Source of the DNA: a virus
DNA: 23,520 nucleotides
Strand: one strand, 5' to 3'
IMG/VR virus record: IMGVR_UViG_3300046804_002198
Span: 1-23,520 of that record
Below, one piece after another: positions 2,680-17,294 of the stretch; the stretch's first letter is position 1; every line of letters starts with the position of its first letter. The notes beneath the pieces were generated by a model, which was not told the origin of the DNA, ran no database searches, and saw only the letters and a list, made by a program, of their open reading frames with translations. The translations under genes and the position numbers were made by a program.

Positions 2680-3315
2680 ATGTTAGATAAAACAAAGAAG
2701 ACAGAAATTGTTGCAATCACTGCACCAAAAATCCAGACAGCAAGCTTTAAGCTGATTGGTACTGCGCCTTTTGTACAAGCTCGATTTTCACAAAAAGCAA
2801 AGCTTGCCATGATGGCGAAGATGGAAGCAGGCGGCACAGCCAAAGGCAAGAAAGTGCGTGACGCGCGTGACTTTGATCAAGACTGTAGAGATGCAATGCA
2901 TATCGGTGTTGATGGCAAGAACGGCGTACCCGCGGGCGCGTTTCGTAATGCTATGATCTCTGCGTGTCGTCTCGTTGGTTTTAAGATGACGCTTGCAAAG
3001 CTTTCTATCTTTGTCGAGGCAGACACGTTCGACGCTGTCGATGGTGTTCCTCTTGTTCACTTACACGGCGATTGGGAGCGCCTCGATATGCACACACGAA
3101 ATGCGACAGGTGTTGTCGATATTCGCGTGCGGCCGATGTGGCGCAAGTGGCATATTGATCTGCGTGTGAAATACGATGCCGATCAATTTACTCTTACCGA
3201 TGTGACCAACTTGCTTATGCGTGCTGGTGTTCAGGTCGGTATTGGTGAAGGCCGACATGATTCCAAATCATCAACAGGTTTAGGTTTTGGGACGTTTGAA
3301 ATTGAAAGAGCTTGA
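2680..3315 (+). CDS. conserved phage protein with RAMP-like sequence pattern
   Basis: A 211-residue protein with a GAGGGAA site upstream. It starts with a likely beta strand (ASFKLIGTAPFVQARF) and continues with a Lys-rich loop (MEAGGTAKGKKVRDARDF). A motif GVPAGAFRNAMISACRLVGF follows at residues 87-106, then a set of beta strands. It ends with the glycine-rich segment VGIGEGRHDSKSSTGLGFGT. I recall a conserved phage protein of this type without an assigned role. The 'P...FR.A' helix plus a C-terminal G.G...(S)..G.G.G loop resembles ferredoxin-like RAMP (Cas7/Csm3-type) RNA-binding proteins. That is inference from pattern only. It is followed within 2 bases by the next gene. Confidence 0.7.
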   Translation: MLDKTKKTEIVAITAPKIQTASFKLIGTAPFVQARFSQKAKLAMMAKMEAGGTAKGKKVRDARDFDQDCRDAMHIGVDGKNGVPAGAFRNAMISACRLVGFKMTLAKLSIFVEADTFDAVDGVPLVHLHGDWERLDMHTRNATGVVDIRVRPMWRKWHIDLRVKYDADQFTLTDVTNLLMRAGVQVGIGEGRHDSKSSTGLGFGTFEIERA

Positions 3316-3316
3316 T

Positions 3317-3751
3317 ATGGACATCAACGCAATAAAAGACGAGCTTCAACAGCTTGCAGTGGGGGGTGTTCTCGAACCTGAACAGGTTGTCGAGGCAGCA
3401 AGAAACCCCAATTCATCCATGCACAATCAATTTGTGTGGGATGATAATGAGGCTTCTCATCTTTATCGTTTGCAACAGGCTCGCGCACTGATCAAACGTG
3501 TAAAGGTTGAGGTGATCCGCTCCGATAATGAAGTGGTGCGGGTTCCAGTATTCGTACGATCGCCGACGGGATCAGGTTATGAAGCCACACAGCAGGTTGT
3601 GGTTCGTCACGCTGATCGTATCACGCTCGTACTCATGACACTCACGACGTGTGCGACGATGCTTAAGAATCTGGCTGCGCCAGAGCTCGATGAGATCATC
3701 GAACACATCGAGAGTCTCAAGGAGAAACTTCTTCTTGAGAATGCTGCCTAA
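3317..3751 (+). CDS. conserved phage hypothetical protein
   Basis: A 144-residue protein starting at the ATG just after the upstream stop, with AAAGAG as a weak ribosome binding site. The longer in-frame start at 3287 lies in the previous gene and is not preferred. Recognisable elements are LEPEQVVEAARNPNSSMHNQ, then FVWDDNEASHLYRLQQARAL, a central beta region (VEVIRSDNEVVRVPVFVR) and a C-terminal amphipathic helix (LDEIIEHIESLKEKLLLEN). I recall similar proteins in other phages with no known function. It is the last gene before the pentamer array, which begins within a few bases of its stop. Confidence 0.7.
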   Translation: MDINAIKDELQQLAVGGVLEPEQVVEAARNPNSSMHNQFVWDDNEASHLYRLQQARALIKRVKVEVIRSDNEVVRVPVFVRSPTGSGYEATQQVVVRHADRITLVLMTLTTCATMLKNLAAPELDEIIEHIESLKEKLLLENAA

Positions 3752-3754
3752 GCC

Positions 3755-4372
3755 AAATGGCAGGCTTCGCAATGCTGGGCGCTGGTGGTTCGGTAACGCA
3801 CAGCAGGGCAAGGCAGGCACGGTACGGCGAGCCGAGGATACGCTAGGCATGACCACGCAAGGCAGGCGAGGCGGGACACGGTATGGCTAGGTCTGGCAAC
3901 GTCTGGCGAGGCAGGCACGGCACGACACGGTGAGCCATGGATTGTCATAGCAAGGCGGGGCAACGCAGGCGAGACTAGGCACTGCTCGGCAATGCGAGGC
4001 AAGGCGGGGCAGGCAAGGCGAGGCGCGTACTGGTCTGACGAGTCGCGGCGAGCCGTGGCAAGGCAGGCAAGGCACGGCAGTGTGAGGCTAGTTTGGGCGA
4101 GGTCAGGCAAGGCAGGCACGGCACGGCTGGGACTTGCAAGGCGCGGCATCGACCGGATCGGCAAGGCAGGCTAGGCAAGGCGCAGCTCGGTGCGGCATGG
4201 CGCAGCAAGGCAGGCTCGGCAGTACTGGGACGGGCTGGGCAGAGCGCGGCTCGGTGCGGCATGGCGAGGCACGGCAGGCAAGACGAGGCGTCGTATGGCG
4301 GGGCAATGCTGTGTAATGCAAAGCAGGCGTGACAAGGCGGCGCACGGTCAGGATAGGCCAAGCACCGCAAAC
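3755..4372. repeat. non-coding GGCNN pentamer array in 44-64 bp blocks
   Basis: About 600 bases are built from 5-base units of the form GGCNN with drifting copies. Once per block the phase is shortened to four bases, giving the 7-mer GGCAGGC. These phase markers start at 3812, 3861, 3910, 3964 (CGCAGGC), 4008, 4062, 4111, 4165, 4209, 4273 and 4322 (AGCAGGC). The spacings are 49, 49, 54, 44, 54, 49, 54, 44, 64 and 49, all 4 modulo 5, so each block is one 4-mer plus 8-12 pentamers with no other slip. A related block starts at 3759 (spacing 53). The + strand has frequent stops and no plausible start site. The array sits between a stop codon and a terminator, so it may be transcribed. Function unknown. 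Confidence 0.9.
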
Positions 4373-4410: not shown

Positions 4411-4486
4411 TGTGCTTGCAATATTCTGCAGCAACTGGTACGGATTATGTGTCGGCCAAGGGGCCGCCTAGATTGGAGATTGCGAT
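4411..4486 (+). promoter_or_regulatory. leader cassette copy B
   Basis: It contains TGCTTGCAATATT (-35-like TTGCAA at 4416-4421), the hairpin CGGCC-AAGG-GGCCG at 4453-4466, then CTAGATTGGAGATTG, which supplies the ribosome binding site for the ATG at 4487. It lies directly after the terminator at 4375-4406, consistent with a fresh transcription start. The -10 box is not obvious. Confidence 0.55.
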
Positions 4487-4711
4487 ATGAGTTCGATTGA
4501 AATTTTCGCCACATGTGACCGTCTTCGCAAGGCATACGCTGCTGATGCAGTCCGTCAGGGTTTCTCGGCGGATGGCATCTATGCCCGCTCCATGTATGAG
4601 ATGGCGCTTGAGGTGTTCATCGCGCAAATGGTCAAGGGCAATGCTAGCCGCACGTTCGAAGAGCACGTCCAGTGGTACCTCAACCAGATTGAGGAGCAGG
4701 CAAGCCTGTGA
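4487..4711 (+). CDS. small hypothetical protein
   Basis: A 74-residue helical protein with a TTGGAGATT ribosome binding site from leader cassette B. The sequence runs MSSIEIFATCDRLRKAYAAD, then IYARSMYEMALEVFIAQMVK, then FEEHVQWYLNQIEEQASL. There are no membrane or metal motifs. It forms a one-gene unit between two terminators, so it is probably expressed on its own. Function unknown. Confidence 0.7.
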   Translation: MSSIEIFATCDRLRKAYAADAVRQGFSADGIYARSMYEMALEVFIAQMVKGNASRTFEEHVQWYLNQIEEQASL

Positions 4712-4806: not shown

Positions 4807-4884
4807 TCTACTTGCACTGGTTTTGGATTTATGATTTTATGATTCTTGTTCGGGGACGGCCCCGACTAGATTGGAGATTGCAAA
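4807..4884 (+). promoter_or_regulatory. leader cassette copy C
   Basis: It has CTTGCACTGG (TTGCAC at 4812-4817), with TTTTAT 17 bases downstream as a possible -10. The hairpin CGGGG-ACGG-CCCCG lies at 4851-4864, followed by ACTAGATTGGAGATTG and the ATG at 4885. It lies just after the terminator at 4758-4789. This copy has the best -10 candidate of the four. Confidence 0.6.
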
Positions 4885-5643
4885 ATGTTCTACTATCGCT
4901 CAGGCCAAGAAGTTTCTGGTGAAGTCCAATCGACCGCACGCGGTCATTCAGCAGCCCAGCCTTATCCCTGCGGCCGTTGCGGCGGCTCAGGCCATTACAG
5001 CTATAACCAAATCGACGGCACAACATGCTTCGAGTGCCGCGGCCATGGCTTCAAAGGCCGCACCCGTGACGTGCCTGTCTACACGGCTGAACAGCTTGAC
5101 AAGCTCAATGCCAAAACAAATGCCAAGGCAGCAAAAAAGGCTGCTGAAGTACATGCACGCGAAACCGCTTTCGACGCGCTCTACGCCGACCTGCTTCTCG
5201 CTGTAGCAAAGCTCGACCATGTGCCTGCGTTCGTAGATGACGTGATCTCCAAGGGCCGCAAGTACGGCACGCTTTCTGACGCGCAGGTTGCAGCCGTCCA
5301 GAAGACGATCGAGCGCGAGCTTGCCAAGAAGGCGCAGGACGCCGCATCTGGCTGGGTCGGCACTGTCGGCGAGCGTATCACGGTCGATGCCACAGTCGTC
5401 TTCGTGACGTCCTACGAAGGCGTTTTCGGCACGACGCACGTTCACGGCTTGCGCGACGCAGCTGGCAACATGCTGATTCACAAGGGTGCCAAGCTTCTGG
5501 TCAATGTGATCGACAGCTATCCGCAGCAGGTCACGAAGGGCGAGCTTGTGCGCTTCTCGGCCACCGTAAAGGAACACGGCACACGCGACGGCGTGAAGCA
5601 GACAATCCTCGCGCGCCCGTCACGCGCAGAGTTTATGGACTGA
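4885..5643 (+). CDS. DnaJ-type zinc finger plus OB-like domain protein
   Basis: A 252-residue protein with a TTGGAGATT site. Residues 29-55 hold two CxxC knuckles of DnaJ cysteine-rich type, CGRCGGSG (Cys29, Cys32) and CFECRGHG (Cys48, Cys51), so one zinc ion is likely bound. No J domain is present. Residues 70-150 are charged and helical. The C-terminal 95 residues (GWVGTVGERITVDATVVFV, DAAGNMLIHKGAKLL, FSATVKEHGTRDGVKQTILA) match a pattern I know from phage OB-like domains with 'D..GN' and 'TVK.H....G.KQT.L.R'. A role in binding nucleic acid or protein partners during replication is plausible but not shown. GC content is visibly higher than in the neighbouring leader. Confidence 0.75.
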   Translation: MFYYRSGQEVSGEVQSTARGHSAAQPYPCGRCGGSGHYSYNQIDGTTCFECRGHGFKGRTRDVPVYTAEQLDKLNAKTNAKAAKKAAEVHARETAFDALYADLLLAVAKLDHVPAFVDDVISKGRKYGTLSDAQVAAVQKTIERELAKKAQDAASGWVGTVGERITVDATVVFVTSYEGVFGTTHVHGLRDAAGNMLIHKGAKLLVNVIDSYPQQVTKGELVRFSATVKEHGTRDGVKQTILARPSRAEFMD

Positions 5644-13944: not shown

Positions 13945-16900
13945 TGGAAGAAGATTATCGCGGCCAGCATCAAGCGCCATCGCGGGACGATGATGTCGGT
14001 GCGCCGTTGCATGATACAACAGGCGTATACCCATCCGATTTGTATGGCCCTAATGGCCTTCATTATTATGGCAATAAAGATAATCCGATTGATCAGGAGT
14101 CATATCGACATACTGTTCGCATAAAAGGAAATCCAGAAGCTCCTGTTTGGATTCATAGAGCTATACCGCTCGAAGTTTATAAAAATGCTATGAAACATGA
14201 AAATCCAATTAGTCAAATGATTAGAAAGGGCGATTGGGTAACGCCAACTAAAGCATATGCTAAACAGCATGGTGAAAGTGTTCTTAATGGAAAATATAAA
14301 ATTGCTAGCAAGAGGGTAAAAGCAAAAGATGTTTTTACCAATGGAGATTCATTGAACGAATGGGGTTATGACCCCGATATTACAAAAGGCGACGGCGGAG
14401 AGGTAGACGGCATCACCGCCTACCACGGCTCACCGCATGAGTTTGAGCAGTTTGACACAAGCAAGATTGGAACGGGCGAAGGCGCACAAGCGTTTGGCCA
14501 TGGGTTGTATTTTGCTGAAGCGGAGCCTGTAGCAAAAGAATATCGTGATGCTCTTCAAAATCCAACAATATCAGTAAAAGGGAAAGAATTTCCTCTTGCG
14601 TCTCAAGCTGCAAACGAAATTTATCCATACGAAGATCTTTCTTATCCAGAGAACATAAATTGGTCAGAAGTTCTTTATCCTATTCATCATGCACTAACAA
14701 AAATGCAAAATTATGATATGGGTTTAGATGAAGCTGTCGATGACATGCGGTCTAATTATTCTCATTACAAACCTGAATATATTGAAAAAGCAGAACAGCT
14801 TATTCGTTCTGTAAAACCTGAAATTAAAAATAAAGGCCACATGTACGAGGTCCACATCGACGCTCATCCTGATCACTTCTTGGATTGGGATAAGCCGTTG
14901 AGTGAGCAGAGCAAGTATGTAAAAAATGCTTTGGCTAATCATACGCCATTGCAAAAAAACAGGCCGTATAAGCCAGAGGATACTGGACAAGACGTATATT
15001 ATAAAAATACCCAAGGTTTGGGCGGCAAAAACATCGCTAGCAATGAATTGATGTCTCTTGGCATCCACGGCATTAAGTATCTTGATGCAGGTAGCCGCGG
15101 GCCACTCGCCAGCTGGAGCACGGATAAACTAACACACAACTACGTCGTCTTCGATCACGACCGCGTAAACATCAAGCGCCGCTATGCAGAAGGCGGCGAG
15201 GTTGAAGCTTATGGAGATGGCGGTACGGCAAAGGCCCGTGGTCATATCATAGCTGCGACAAAAGGTGATGCGTTTAATCAACAAACGCATTATTTTATGG
15301 ACACGCATTCTGGTTTGAAAAGAATACAACCTGCACAAGGCTCTGGTGGAATTAACTTATATCAAGAACATGAAGATAAATCTTTTCATGATCCAGAAAA
15401 AATTAAAAATGAATATCATTCATTTTCTTTAGTGCACCCAGATGTAAAGTTTGGTGAAAAGCTCCACACTCCAATCCAAGCTTTAGCTTTGCCAGAAGGC
15501 GCAAAATTGCGTTTGGCTTCTGGTAAAACAATGACCAAGACAGCAAATGATAAATTTCGTTATCCTGATGATGATAAGGATTACGAGTATTTTCATTTTG
15601 CAACAGGTCGTCACGCGCCTGTGTGGGAAGGCAATGAAAATGAAAATACATGGCATGAGCCGCAACATTTTGAAGAAGGCGGTGATGTCGAACCAACAAA
15701 TACAGTAAAGGCTTACAAGCTTTTCCGCACAGATCCGCGCAAGCCGAACCAAATATTCCCTTTGTTTGTTGATGCAAATAAACCTGTTCCAATGGGCCAA
15801 TGGGTTAGCGCAGAAGCTGGCCCTCCGGGAAAAAATCCGACCAAAGTAAAATCAAAGCTTGGTGACCTTGCGTATCGCCCCGGCTGGCATGCTGGTGATT
15901 TACCTATTGCAACGCATATCGGCGGCAAATCTAAAAAATCATTGAAGGCACCCGACTACCGTCCTGACAATCATGTGTGGGCTGAAATTGAAATGCCTGA
16001 TGATGTCGATTGGCAATCGATCGCAAACAGCCGAGCTCGCATGACAAAGGCAGGTAAGCCTGATTTAAAAACCGCACATATTACAGATCAGGTTCCTCAT
16101 GGTGGCCACTATCGTTATAAAACAAATCCAAACATGACGGGCAACTGGCTCATTGGCGGCGAGATGAAAGTCAATCGCATCCTTGGCGATGATGAAGTCA
16201 AAGCTATCAATGACGCTCATGGTGTTGCGGATCTTCCGCGACTGCCAAAAGCAGACGGCGGAGAAGTCGAGCGCGATCATTTTGGCTTCGGCGGTGACAC
16301 AGAATTTTCTGGCAGCAAACCAGAACGCGGTGCAACAGGATCAGCTGGTTCATCGGGGGCATCAAACGGATCTTCTAATCAACAAGAAAATCCAAATACT
16401 ACATCTGATCAAAATGGTCATGATAACAGTCAACAAACACAACATAGTTATCGCGATATGCCGCCTAATTTATTGCAATCTCAGCTTAATTTAAATGCTA
16501 AAAATTTTGCTATCATTGATGCAATGAAAGAAGAAAACGCAGAAGATAAACAACGAAAAGCAGAACAGATGACGGCATGGGCAAACGCGGGCTTTCCTGC
16601 GGGCGGTCCATCATCAATGCAAATTGCCAATGAAAAACGTCCAAGCGCATATCAAATGGCAGACATATCAAACAAATCGCCAATAATGAAATCACAGGCT
16701 GATATTATTTCATCAATCATGCCTTCTCCGCAACATTATGAATCATCCGTTGCAGGAAATCAAATAGCGGCCGCGCCGATACCGCAACGTTTTGAACCGA
16801 CAATCGCGCAGAACCAAATCGCTCCTGCGCCAATGCCGCAACATTACGAGCCAACATTTGCACAAAATCAAATTGCGCCTGCGCCGATGCCTCAACACTA

Positions 16901-17294
16901 TGAGTCAACATTTGCGCAAAACCAGATCGCGCCTGCGCCACAACAGGTTGCATTCACGCAGCCTGCGCGACCGATTTCGCTAACGCCTGTCAACAAGCCA
17001 ATACAGCTTGCATCGCTGGATAGCTCAACATTTAAGCCAGCTTCACCTATGCCTGACTTCCAACCGCAGCAACCGCAAGGCGGAGGATCACGCCGCCGCT
17101 TGGTGAAGAAGCTTATGCCTGACGGTACTTATCAAGATGTCTGGGAAGAATATGCCCATGGTGGCGTTGCAAAATATCGTGCTCCCTATCATAATCCCGC
17201 GATTGTCGAGCATGCGCTCGCCAAAATCAGTGCGCCGCCACCCGCATTGGACCCTTCAGCAATTATGGTGGCAAAACGGGGACGCCCGTTCTAA
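13944..17294 (+). CDS. large polyvalent protein with two ADP-ribosyltransferase-like domains
   Basis: An 1116-residue protein starting in a TGATG overlap. Domain 1 (about 20-145) has Arg72 (VWIHRAIP), Thr100/102 (GDWVTPTKAYA) and Glu139 (NEWGY), an R-S/T-E-like arrangement of ADP-ribosyltransferases. Domain 2 (157-412) has His161 (YHGSPHEF), GTGEGAQAFGHGLYFAE with Tyr189, and NELMSLGIHGIKYLDAGSR, as in ART-PolyVal H-Y-E enzymes. Domain 3 (about 430-575) is unknown. Domain 4 (587-755) holds LFRTDPRK and LAYRPGWHAGDLPIATHIG, a domain known from phages and mobile elements. The rest is disordered with four 18-residue repeats (929-1000). GGEV/GGDV motifs at 151, 417, 579 and 772 separate the modules. 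Probably packaged and injected. Confidence 0.8.
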   Translation: MEEDYRGQHQAPSRDDDVGAPLHDTTGVYPSDLYGPNGLHYYGNKDNPIDQESYRHTVRIKGNPEAPVWIHRAIPLEVYKNAMKHENPISQMIRKGDWVTPTKAYAKQHGESVLNGKYKIASKRVKAKDVFTNGDSLNEWGYDPDITKGDGGEVDGITAYHGSPHEFEQFDTSKIGTGEGAQAFGHGLYFAEAEPVAKEYRDALQNPTISVKGKEFPLASQAANEIYPYEDLSYPENINWSEVLYPIHHALTKMQNYDMGLDEAVDDMRSNYSHYKPEYIEKAEQLIRSVKPEIKNKGHMYEVHIDAHPDHFLDWDKPLSEQSKYVKNALANHTPLQKNRPYKPEDTGQDVYYKNTQGLGGKNIASNELMSLGIHGIKYLDAGSRGPLASWSTDKLTHNYVVFDHDRVNIKRRYAEGGEVEAYGDGGTAKARGHIIAATKGDAFNQQTHYFMDTHSGLKRIQPAQGSGGINLYQEHEDKSFHDPEKIKNEYHSFSLVHPDVKFGEKLHTPIQALALPEGAKLRLASGKTMTKTANDKFRYPDDDKDYEYFHFATGRHAPVWEGNENENTWHEPQHFEEGGDVEPTNTVKAYKLFRTDPRKPNQIFPLFVDANKPVPMGQWVSAEAGPPGKNPTKVKSKLGDLAYRPGWHAGDLPIATHIGGKSKKSLKAPDYRPDNHVWAEIEMPDDVDWQSIANSRARMTKAGKPDLKTAHITDQVPHGGHYRYKTNPNMTGNWLIGGEMKVNRILGDDEVKAINDAHGVADLPRLPKADGGEVERDHFGFGGDTEFSGSKPERGATGSAGSSGASNGSSNQQENPNTTSDQNGHDNSQQTQHSYRDMPPNLLQSQLNLNAKNFAIIDAMKEENAEDKQRKAEQMTAWANAGFPAGGPSSMQIANEKRPSAYQMADISNKSPIMKSQADIISSIMPSPQHYESSVAGNQIAAAPIPQRFEPTIAQNQIAPAPMPQHYEPTFAQNQIAPAPMPQHYESTFAQNQIAPAPQQVAFTQPARPISLTPVNKPIQLASLDSSTFKPASPMPDFQPQQPQGGGSRRRLVKKLMPDGTYQDVWEEYAHGGVAKYRAPYHNPAIVEHALAKISAPPPALDPSAIMVAKRGRPF
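16728..16943 (+). repeat. four in-frame 54-bp repeats (PQHYE...AQNQIAPAPM)
   Basis: Four consecutive 18-codon units start at 16728, 16782, 16836 and 16890, of the form PQHYEPTFAQNQIAPAPM with substitutions. Units 3 and 4 are nearly identical in protein but differ at several third codon positions, so they are not freshly duplicated. They lie in the disordered C-terminal part of the large protein and probably act as a flexible spacer. Confidence 0.85.

What the first reader, a model, noticed from the sequence alone, without database searches (positions are those of the whole stretch)
3755..4372. Two-level periodic GGCNN array with one 4-base phase shift per block
The region keeps strict 5-base phase (GGCNN, often a GGCAA unit) for over 500 bases. 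Exactly one 4-base unit per block forms GGCAGGC. Eleven such markers are spaced 49, 49, 54, 44, 54, 49, 54, 44, 64 and 49, all 4 mod 5. Positions 1-3 of each pentamer are held and the last two vary, so selection appears to act on the pitch and the GGC core, not on a fixed sequence. Most blocks end in a GCAA pentamer just before the marker. It follows a stop codon directly and ends at a strong terminator, so it could be a structured 3' RNA. A 5-bp pitch also places GGC at half-turns of the DNA helix, which would suit a protein-bound packaging or origin site. I know of no named element with this organisation.
Basis: partly seen in the sequence, partly recalled or inferred. Interest (0 to 1): 0.88.

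Follow-up and report, generated by a model that had tools for sequence, protein, structure and literature searches.

The report
Phage VIPR guide-RNA array, punctuated
The repeated stretch is a bank of about eleven to twelve short guide RNAs of a newly described phage weapon system (VIPR, a relative and possible ancestor of CRISPR), and here the guides are packed end to end and separated only by a four-letter unit that breaks the five-letter rhythm.

Summary
In detail: 3755-4372 is a GGY-NN pentamer array interrupted by 4-nt GGCA units at exactly the spacings reported. It is not a packaging or origin site. Its upstream gene (2680-3315) encodes a RAMP (Cas7/Csm3-like) protein whose family profile matches the solved SUSP1 Vipr protein (E=1.8e-15). 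The array is therefore the guide array of a VIPR system, described in a 2026 preprint (PMC13142463): Vipr protein plus RNAs of GGY/NN repeats, where the NN pairs specify DNA targets with a 1-nt skip. The gene between Vipr and array (3317-3751) belongs to a second family: in 50,697 phage records exactly the same 33 carry both. I found such arrays in more than 100 viral contigs, in cultured Mycobacterium/Gordonia phages and beside Vipr in bacterial genomes, on Vipr's strand. 4-nt units outnumber 6-nt units about 8 to 14 to 1; blocks mostly hold 8-13 repeats; relatives differ by whole blocks, so a block is the unit of turnover, i.e. one guide. Native targets could not be identified. New member of a known kind; the tail-less, 4-nt-punctuated layout may be a variant, possibly the preprint's 'staggered arrays', whose supplement I could not read.

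The parts
2680..3315 (+). vipr gene: 211-aa RAMP-fold protein with C-terminal glycine-rich loop (VGIGEGRHDSKSSTGLGFG)
   Evidence: profile of 67 relatives matches PDB 36pp 'SUSP1 Vipr protein' E=1.8e-15 over nearly its full length; AF2 model pLDDT 88, top Foldseek hits Csm3/Cas7 RAMPs E~1e-5; invariant G183, G187, R192, G204
3317..3751 (+). vap-like accessory gene, 144 aa, no recognised domain
   Evidence: family linked to Vipr in 91 of 117 array loci and in the same 33 phage records as Vipr; AF2 pLDDT 95 but no fold or family match
3755..4372 (+). vrRNA (guide) array: 124 GGY-NN units, 12 of them 4 nt
3763..3815 (+). block 1, irregular
3816..3864 (+). guide block 2 (NN: AC AC GA GA TA TA AT CA AA)
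3865..3913 (+). guide block 3 (GA GG AC AT TA CT AA CT GA)
3914..3967 (+). guide block 4 (AC AC AC GA AT TT AT AA GG AA)
3968..4011 (+). guide block 5 (GA TA AC TC AA GA AA GG), shared with relatives L083 and L084
4012..4065 (+). guide block 6 (AA GA GC CT CT GA GC GA GT AA)
4066..4114 (+). guide block 7 (AA AC AG GA TA TG GA CA AA)
4115..4168 (+). guide block 8 (AC AC TG CT AA GC AT CC TC AA)
4169..4212 (+). guide block 9 (TA AA GC TC GC AT GC AA)
4213..4276 (+). guide block 10 (TC AG TG CG TG AG GC TC GC AT GA AC)
4277..4325 (+). guide block 11 (AA GA GT AT GG AA TG AA AA)
4326..4372 (+). guide block 12 (GT AA GG AC CA TA CA AC), shared with L083 and L084
4375..4402 (+). intrinsic terminator closing the array

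Best explanation
The window carries a VIPR system: vipr (2680-3315), a vap-like accessory gene (3317-3751) and a guide array (3755-4372) ended by a terminator. The array is transcribed with the genes. Vipr, a small relative of Cas7, coats the RNA with one subunit per GGY-NN pentamer. The GGY is held by protein and the NN pairs face the target, so that each block of about 8-12 pentamers is one guide that reads DNA as xNN-xNN-xNN. The 4-nt GGCA unit breaks the register and marks where one guide ends and the next begins; it probably is, or lies at, the processing or filament-ending site. The guides presumably repress genes of competing phages or prophages. Shown here: the array, the Vipr homology and fold, linkage, orientation, punctuation and whole-block turnover. 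Taken from PMC13142463: RNA binding, the 1-nt skip and repression. Inferred: co-transcription, the role of the 4-nt unit and the targets.
For: Vipr profile vs PDB 36pp E=1.8e-15; RAMP fold. Units are GGY-NN with G absent at position 3, the consensus in PMC13142463. Vipr homologs in 97 of 117 array loci, most of the rest truncated next to the array; only 3 of 89 loci without a strong array, and all three came from the array pattern scan. All elements on one strand. Of 25 loci found in GTDB by Vipr alone, 21 hold array-like tracts, nearly all on Vipr's strand. The same 33 of 50,697 phage records carry both Vipr and the accessory family. In 31 arrays reached without the array pattern scan, 283 4-nt vs 34 6-nt units, none best on the other strand. 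Relatives with 98% identical Vipr (L083, L084) share 2 of about 12 blocks with the window; L083 and L084 differ by whole blocks, as do M. smegmatis phages ByChance vs SwagPigglett and Brocalys vs Donkeykong.
Against: No native target was found. Window guides in IMG/VR gave at best 19 of 20 (L215), which is near chance; 679 guides against a 2 Mb local pool showed no advantage for skip 1 over skips 0, 2, 3; Bradyrhizobium guides in 196 congeners and mycobacteriophage guides in three phage segments gave nothing decisive. No expression data. No repeated 3' tail as in the SUSP1 type. The window Vipr alone, without its family profile, matches 36pp only at E=0.026.
Confidence: 0.93

Rival explanations
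1. A VIPR array in which guides are not one per block: mature vrRNAs overlap or run across the 4-nt units (the preprint's 'staggered arrays with overlapping vrRNAs').
For: PMC13142463 mentions such arrays; 4-nt units place neighbouring blocks in staggered registers.
Against: Turnover between close relatives is of whole blocks bounded by the 4-nt units; block length peaks at 8-13 repeats, close to the 9-16 repeats of known vrRNAs.
Confidence: 0.3
2. A decaying simple GGCAA microsatellite with no function.
For: Units resemble GGCAA; GGC is imperfect (66 of 124 units exact).
Against: NN pairs are diverse while GGY is held and G is never seen at position 3; 4-nt units far exceed 6-nt ones across arrays; strict linkage and strand with Vipr.
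Confidence: 0.02
3. A DNA site (packaging, origin or recombination) bound by a protein every half-turn.
For: 5-bp pitch; a gene with a weak match to a RecE-like exonuclease family lies upstream.
Against: Fixed strand relative to Vipr, absent from 79 loci of related terminases, and the terminator at its end points to an RNA.
Confidence: 0.02
4. The reverse-strand open frames (for example 3748-4164) encode a repetitive protein.
For: Long open frames exist.
Against: A 5-nt period with 4-nt slips destroys any constant reading frame; absence of stops follows from GCC-rich composition (inference).
Confidence: 0.01

Closest known systems
VIPR (Viral Interference Programmable Repeat), PMC13142463; SUSP1 and P. 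fulva type II systems; PDB 36pp
   Same: RAMP-type Vipr protein; adjacent accessory gene; GGY/NN tandem-repeat RNA; about 9-16 repeats per guide; phage-borne; several guides per locus
   Different: Here about eleven guides abut in one continuous array without the invariable 3' tail described for SUSP1, separated only by a 4-nt GGCA unit; the accessory family has no detectable relation to a known domain; type within the preprint's seven could not be assigned (supplement not readable)
Class 1 CRISPR-Cas (Csm3/Cas7)
   Same: RAMP fold, glycine-rich loop, RNA coated by protein subunits at a fixed nucleotide step (for Vipr inferred); turnover of guides as whole units
   Different: No cas genes detected, no palindromic repeats or spacers; variable letters are spread through every pentamer; step of 5 nt, not 6
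Microsatellite or minisatellite arrays
   Same: Short unit, block period near 49
   Different: Variable letters at fixed positions and phase-marking 4-nt units, linked to a specific gene

Membership tests
VIPR system | Vipr protein: RAMP fold of about 20 kDa related to SUSP1 Vipr | tested here: met
   (single-sequence match alone weak)
VIPR system | Tandem repeats of GGY alternating with hypervariable NN | tested here: met
VIPR system | About 9-16 repeats per guide RNA | tested here: met
   8-12 pentamers plus the 4-nt unit per block in the window; mode 10 over 106 arrays
VIPR system | Accessory (vap) gene beside vipr | tested here: met
   a linked second family in the same records; whether it is one of Vap1-6 was not testable
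VIPR system | Guide RNAs transcribed and bound by Vipr | not testable with these tools
   no RNA data
VIPR system | Target recognition by the 1-nt skip (xNN) rule | tested here: inconclusive
   no targets found; coding-phase test weak and not frame-specific
VIPR type II (SUSP1 clade) | Invariable structured 3' tail after each repeat tract | tested here: not met
   blocks abut, separated only by the 4-nt unit; so not filed as this type
Class 1 CRISPR-Cas | CRISPR repeats with spacers and cas genes | tested here: not met
   no Cas family in hmmscan of the neighbouring proteins tested and no tandem repeat-spacer array reported there

The most novel reading that the evidence does not exclude
The 4-nt GGCA unit is a punctuation mark: a selected register break that separates tail-less guides in a continuous array, ends or starts each Vipr filament and directs processing, so that guides are added and lost as whole blocks without spacers, tails or ribozymes.
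Probability: 0.5. Interest if true: 0.65.

Novelty: new member of a known kind. Interest (0 to 1): 0.55.

Why it matters
VIPR is a very recent discovery, a programmable RNA-guided DNA recognition system that may predate CRISPR. This locus and more than a hundred relatives show a compact array form in which guide boundaries can be read directly from sequence, which makes guide repertoires, their turnover and their targets countable. Cultured M. smegmatis and Gordonia phages carry it (27 and 5 records), so it can be tested in ordinary laboratory strains; their array stretches are partly annotated as probably spurious genes.

Tried and rejected
Rfam and tRNA scans of the window: nothing. RNA folding of the array: z -2.2 with only 20 shuffles, modest, not evidence for a fixed structure. 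Target searches under the 1-nt skip rule in IMG/VR, in Bradyrhizobium genomes, in a 2 Mb local pool and in Che8, Giles and TM4 segments: nothing beyond chance; a tblastn of one decoded guide peptide found nothing. A target-free test that guides read codon positions 1-2: excess z 3-4 but equal for positions 2-3, so not informative. Pfam, NCBIfam, PDB sequence and fold searches for the accessory protein: no convincing match. Packaging/origin site, microsatellite and antisense protein were considered and rejected (see rivals).

Full report
OBSERVATION. In 3755-4372, self-identity is 0.50 at lag 5 and 0.52 at lag 49; eleven GCAGGC markers lie at 3813-4323 with spacings 49, 49, 54, 44, 54, 49, 54, 44, 64, 49. 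A dynamic-programming score for chains of GGC units gives 198.9 for the array and at most 19.9 for 50 shuffles. Of 124 units 111 are counted as 5 nt, 12 as 4 nt and none as 6 nt. Position 3 is C 78%, T 14%, A 7%, G 0%: the core is GGY.

THE ELEMENT IS WIDESPREAD AND GENE-LINKED. A scan of IMG/VR with GGCAAGGCAGGCNNGGCNNGGC hit at least 119 stretches, nearly all of those fetched carrying such arrays. The arrays usually start within about 20 nt of the stop codon of a same-strand gene, and most of those genes form two families. One (family B) holds the window gene 2680-3315, the other (family A) the window gene 3317-3751. Iterated searches found B in 97 of 117 array loci and in 3 of 89 other loci, and A in 91 array loci. 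The 3 exceptions came from the array pattern scan itself. Most array loci without B are cut off next to the array; L085, L091, L096, L142 and L182 are true exceptions. The order is mostly B-A-array (41) or B-array-A (32), and no element lies on the opposite strand. In 50,697 phage records, exactly the same 33 carry both A and B: 27 Mycobacterium, 5 Gordonia, 1 cyanophage. Seventy-nine loci fetched for a related terminase, not counting the window's own phage, have no array.

WHAT FAMILY B IS. Its C-terminal GxGxGR...GxGxG loop suggested a RAMP protein. The AlphaFold2 model (pLDDT 88) matches Csm3/Cas7 subunits best (E about 1e-5). A profile of 67 members matches PDB 36pp, 'SUSP1 Vipr protein', at E=1.8e-15 over positions 11-195 of 195; the window sequence alone reaches only E=0.026. 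A paper search led to PMC13142463, which describes VIPR: a RAMP protein (Vipr), an accessory gene, and vrRNAs of 9-16 repeats with conserved GGY and hypervariable NN; NN pairs bind DNA with one skipped base between pairs; complexes repress competing phages. The window has all the sequence hallmarks that could be tested.

THE 4-NT UNIT. With equal penalties for short and long units, 106 arrays contain 929 4-nt and 68 6-nt units; the distance between 4-nt units peaks at 8-13 repeats (mode 10); the 4-nt unit is GGC in 88% and ends in A in 91%, and the next unit is GGC in 89%. Because those loci were mostly found with a pattern holding the junction, I repeated the count on 31 arrays reached by other routes (Vipr, the accessory gene, or overall similarity in phage records): 283 against 34, the same peak of block lengths, final A in 82%, GGC 59%. 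So the excess of 4-nt units and the block length do not depend on the search pattern, while the strength of the junction consensus partly does.

BLOCKS ARE THE UNIT OF TURNOVER. L083 and L084 have Vipr 98% identical to the window's but share only blocks 5 and 12 with it; L083 and L084 share most blocks and differ by entire ones. Mycobacterium phages show the same: ByChance lacks one block of SwagPigglett and BobaPhett; Brocalys lacks two of Donkeykong. This is what is expected if a block is one guide.

MECHANISM. Shown: array, Vipr homology and fold, linkage, orientation, punctuation, turnover. From the preprint: binding of RNA by Vipr, 1-nt skip, repression. Inferred: each block is one guide; the 4-nt unit breaks the filament register and marks guide ends; targets are competing phages. 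I could not find native targets. The best window hit (19 of 20 in L215) is near chance for the collection size; a guide shared by two relatives, two Bradyrhizobium guides and a mycobacteriophage guide gave nothing decisive. Some decoded guides read like plausible peptides (for example block 6 at 4012: K E A L L E A D V K; Quico in antisense: T L S M A Q I L K A M D I P), but this was not shown to exceed chance.

NOVELTY. A new member of the VIPR kind, not filed under its SUSP1 type II form, because there is no tail. The continuous array punctuated by GGCA may be the preprint's 'staggered arrays with overlapping vrRNAs'; the supplement was not available, so I do not claim the layout as new.

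Noticed in passing
window 4465-4487 and 4853-4885: Two small genes downstream of the array share the leader TAGATTGGAGATTGC directly before their start codons, each preceded by a GC-rich hairpin-like stretch (CGGCCAAGGGGCCG; CGGGGACGGCCCCG); relative L083 has a similar leader after its array. Possibly a repeated promoter or translation leader.
   Followed up: no
window 16728-16940: 54-bp tandem repeat inside a 1117-aa open frame in the structural-gene region.
   Followed up: no
L204:2486-2872 (Donkeykong gene 48), L205:2510-2833 (UmaThurman gene 40): Annotated hypothetical genes that lie in VIPR guide arrays; probably not genes.
   Followed up: partly
L142, L085, L091, L096, L182: GGC arrays with kilobases of flank but no clearly detectable Vipr of this family; may hold a divergent Vipr or act in trans.
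   Followed up: partly
L163:3921-5549, L177:6723-8007: Very long arrays of 332 and 262 units, some 25-35 blocks: large guide repertoires.
   Followed up: no
window 4169-4276: Blocks 9 and 10 share the run GC TC GC AT G, including a GGT in the same unit, suggesting partial block duplication.
   Followed up: no
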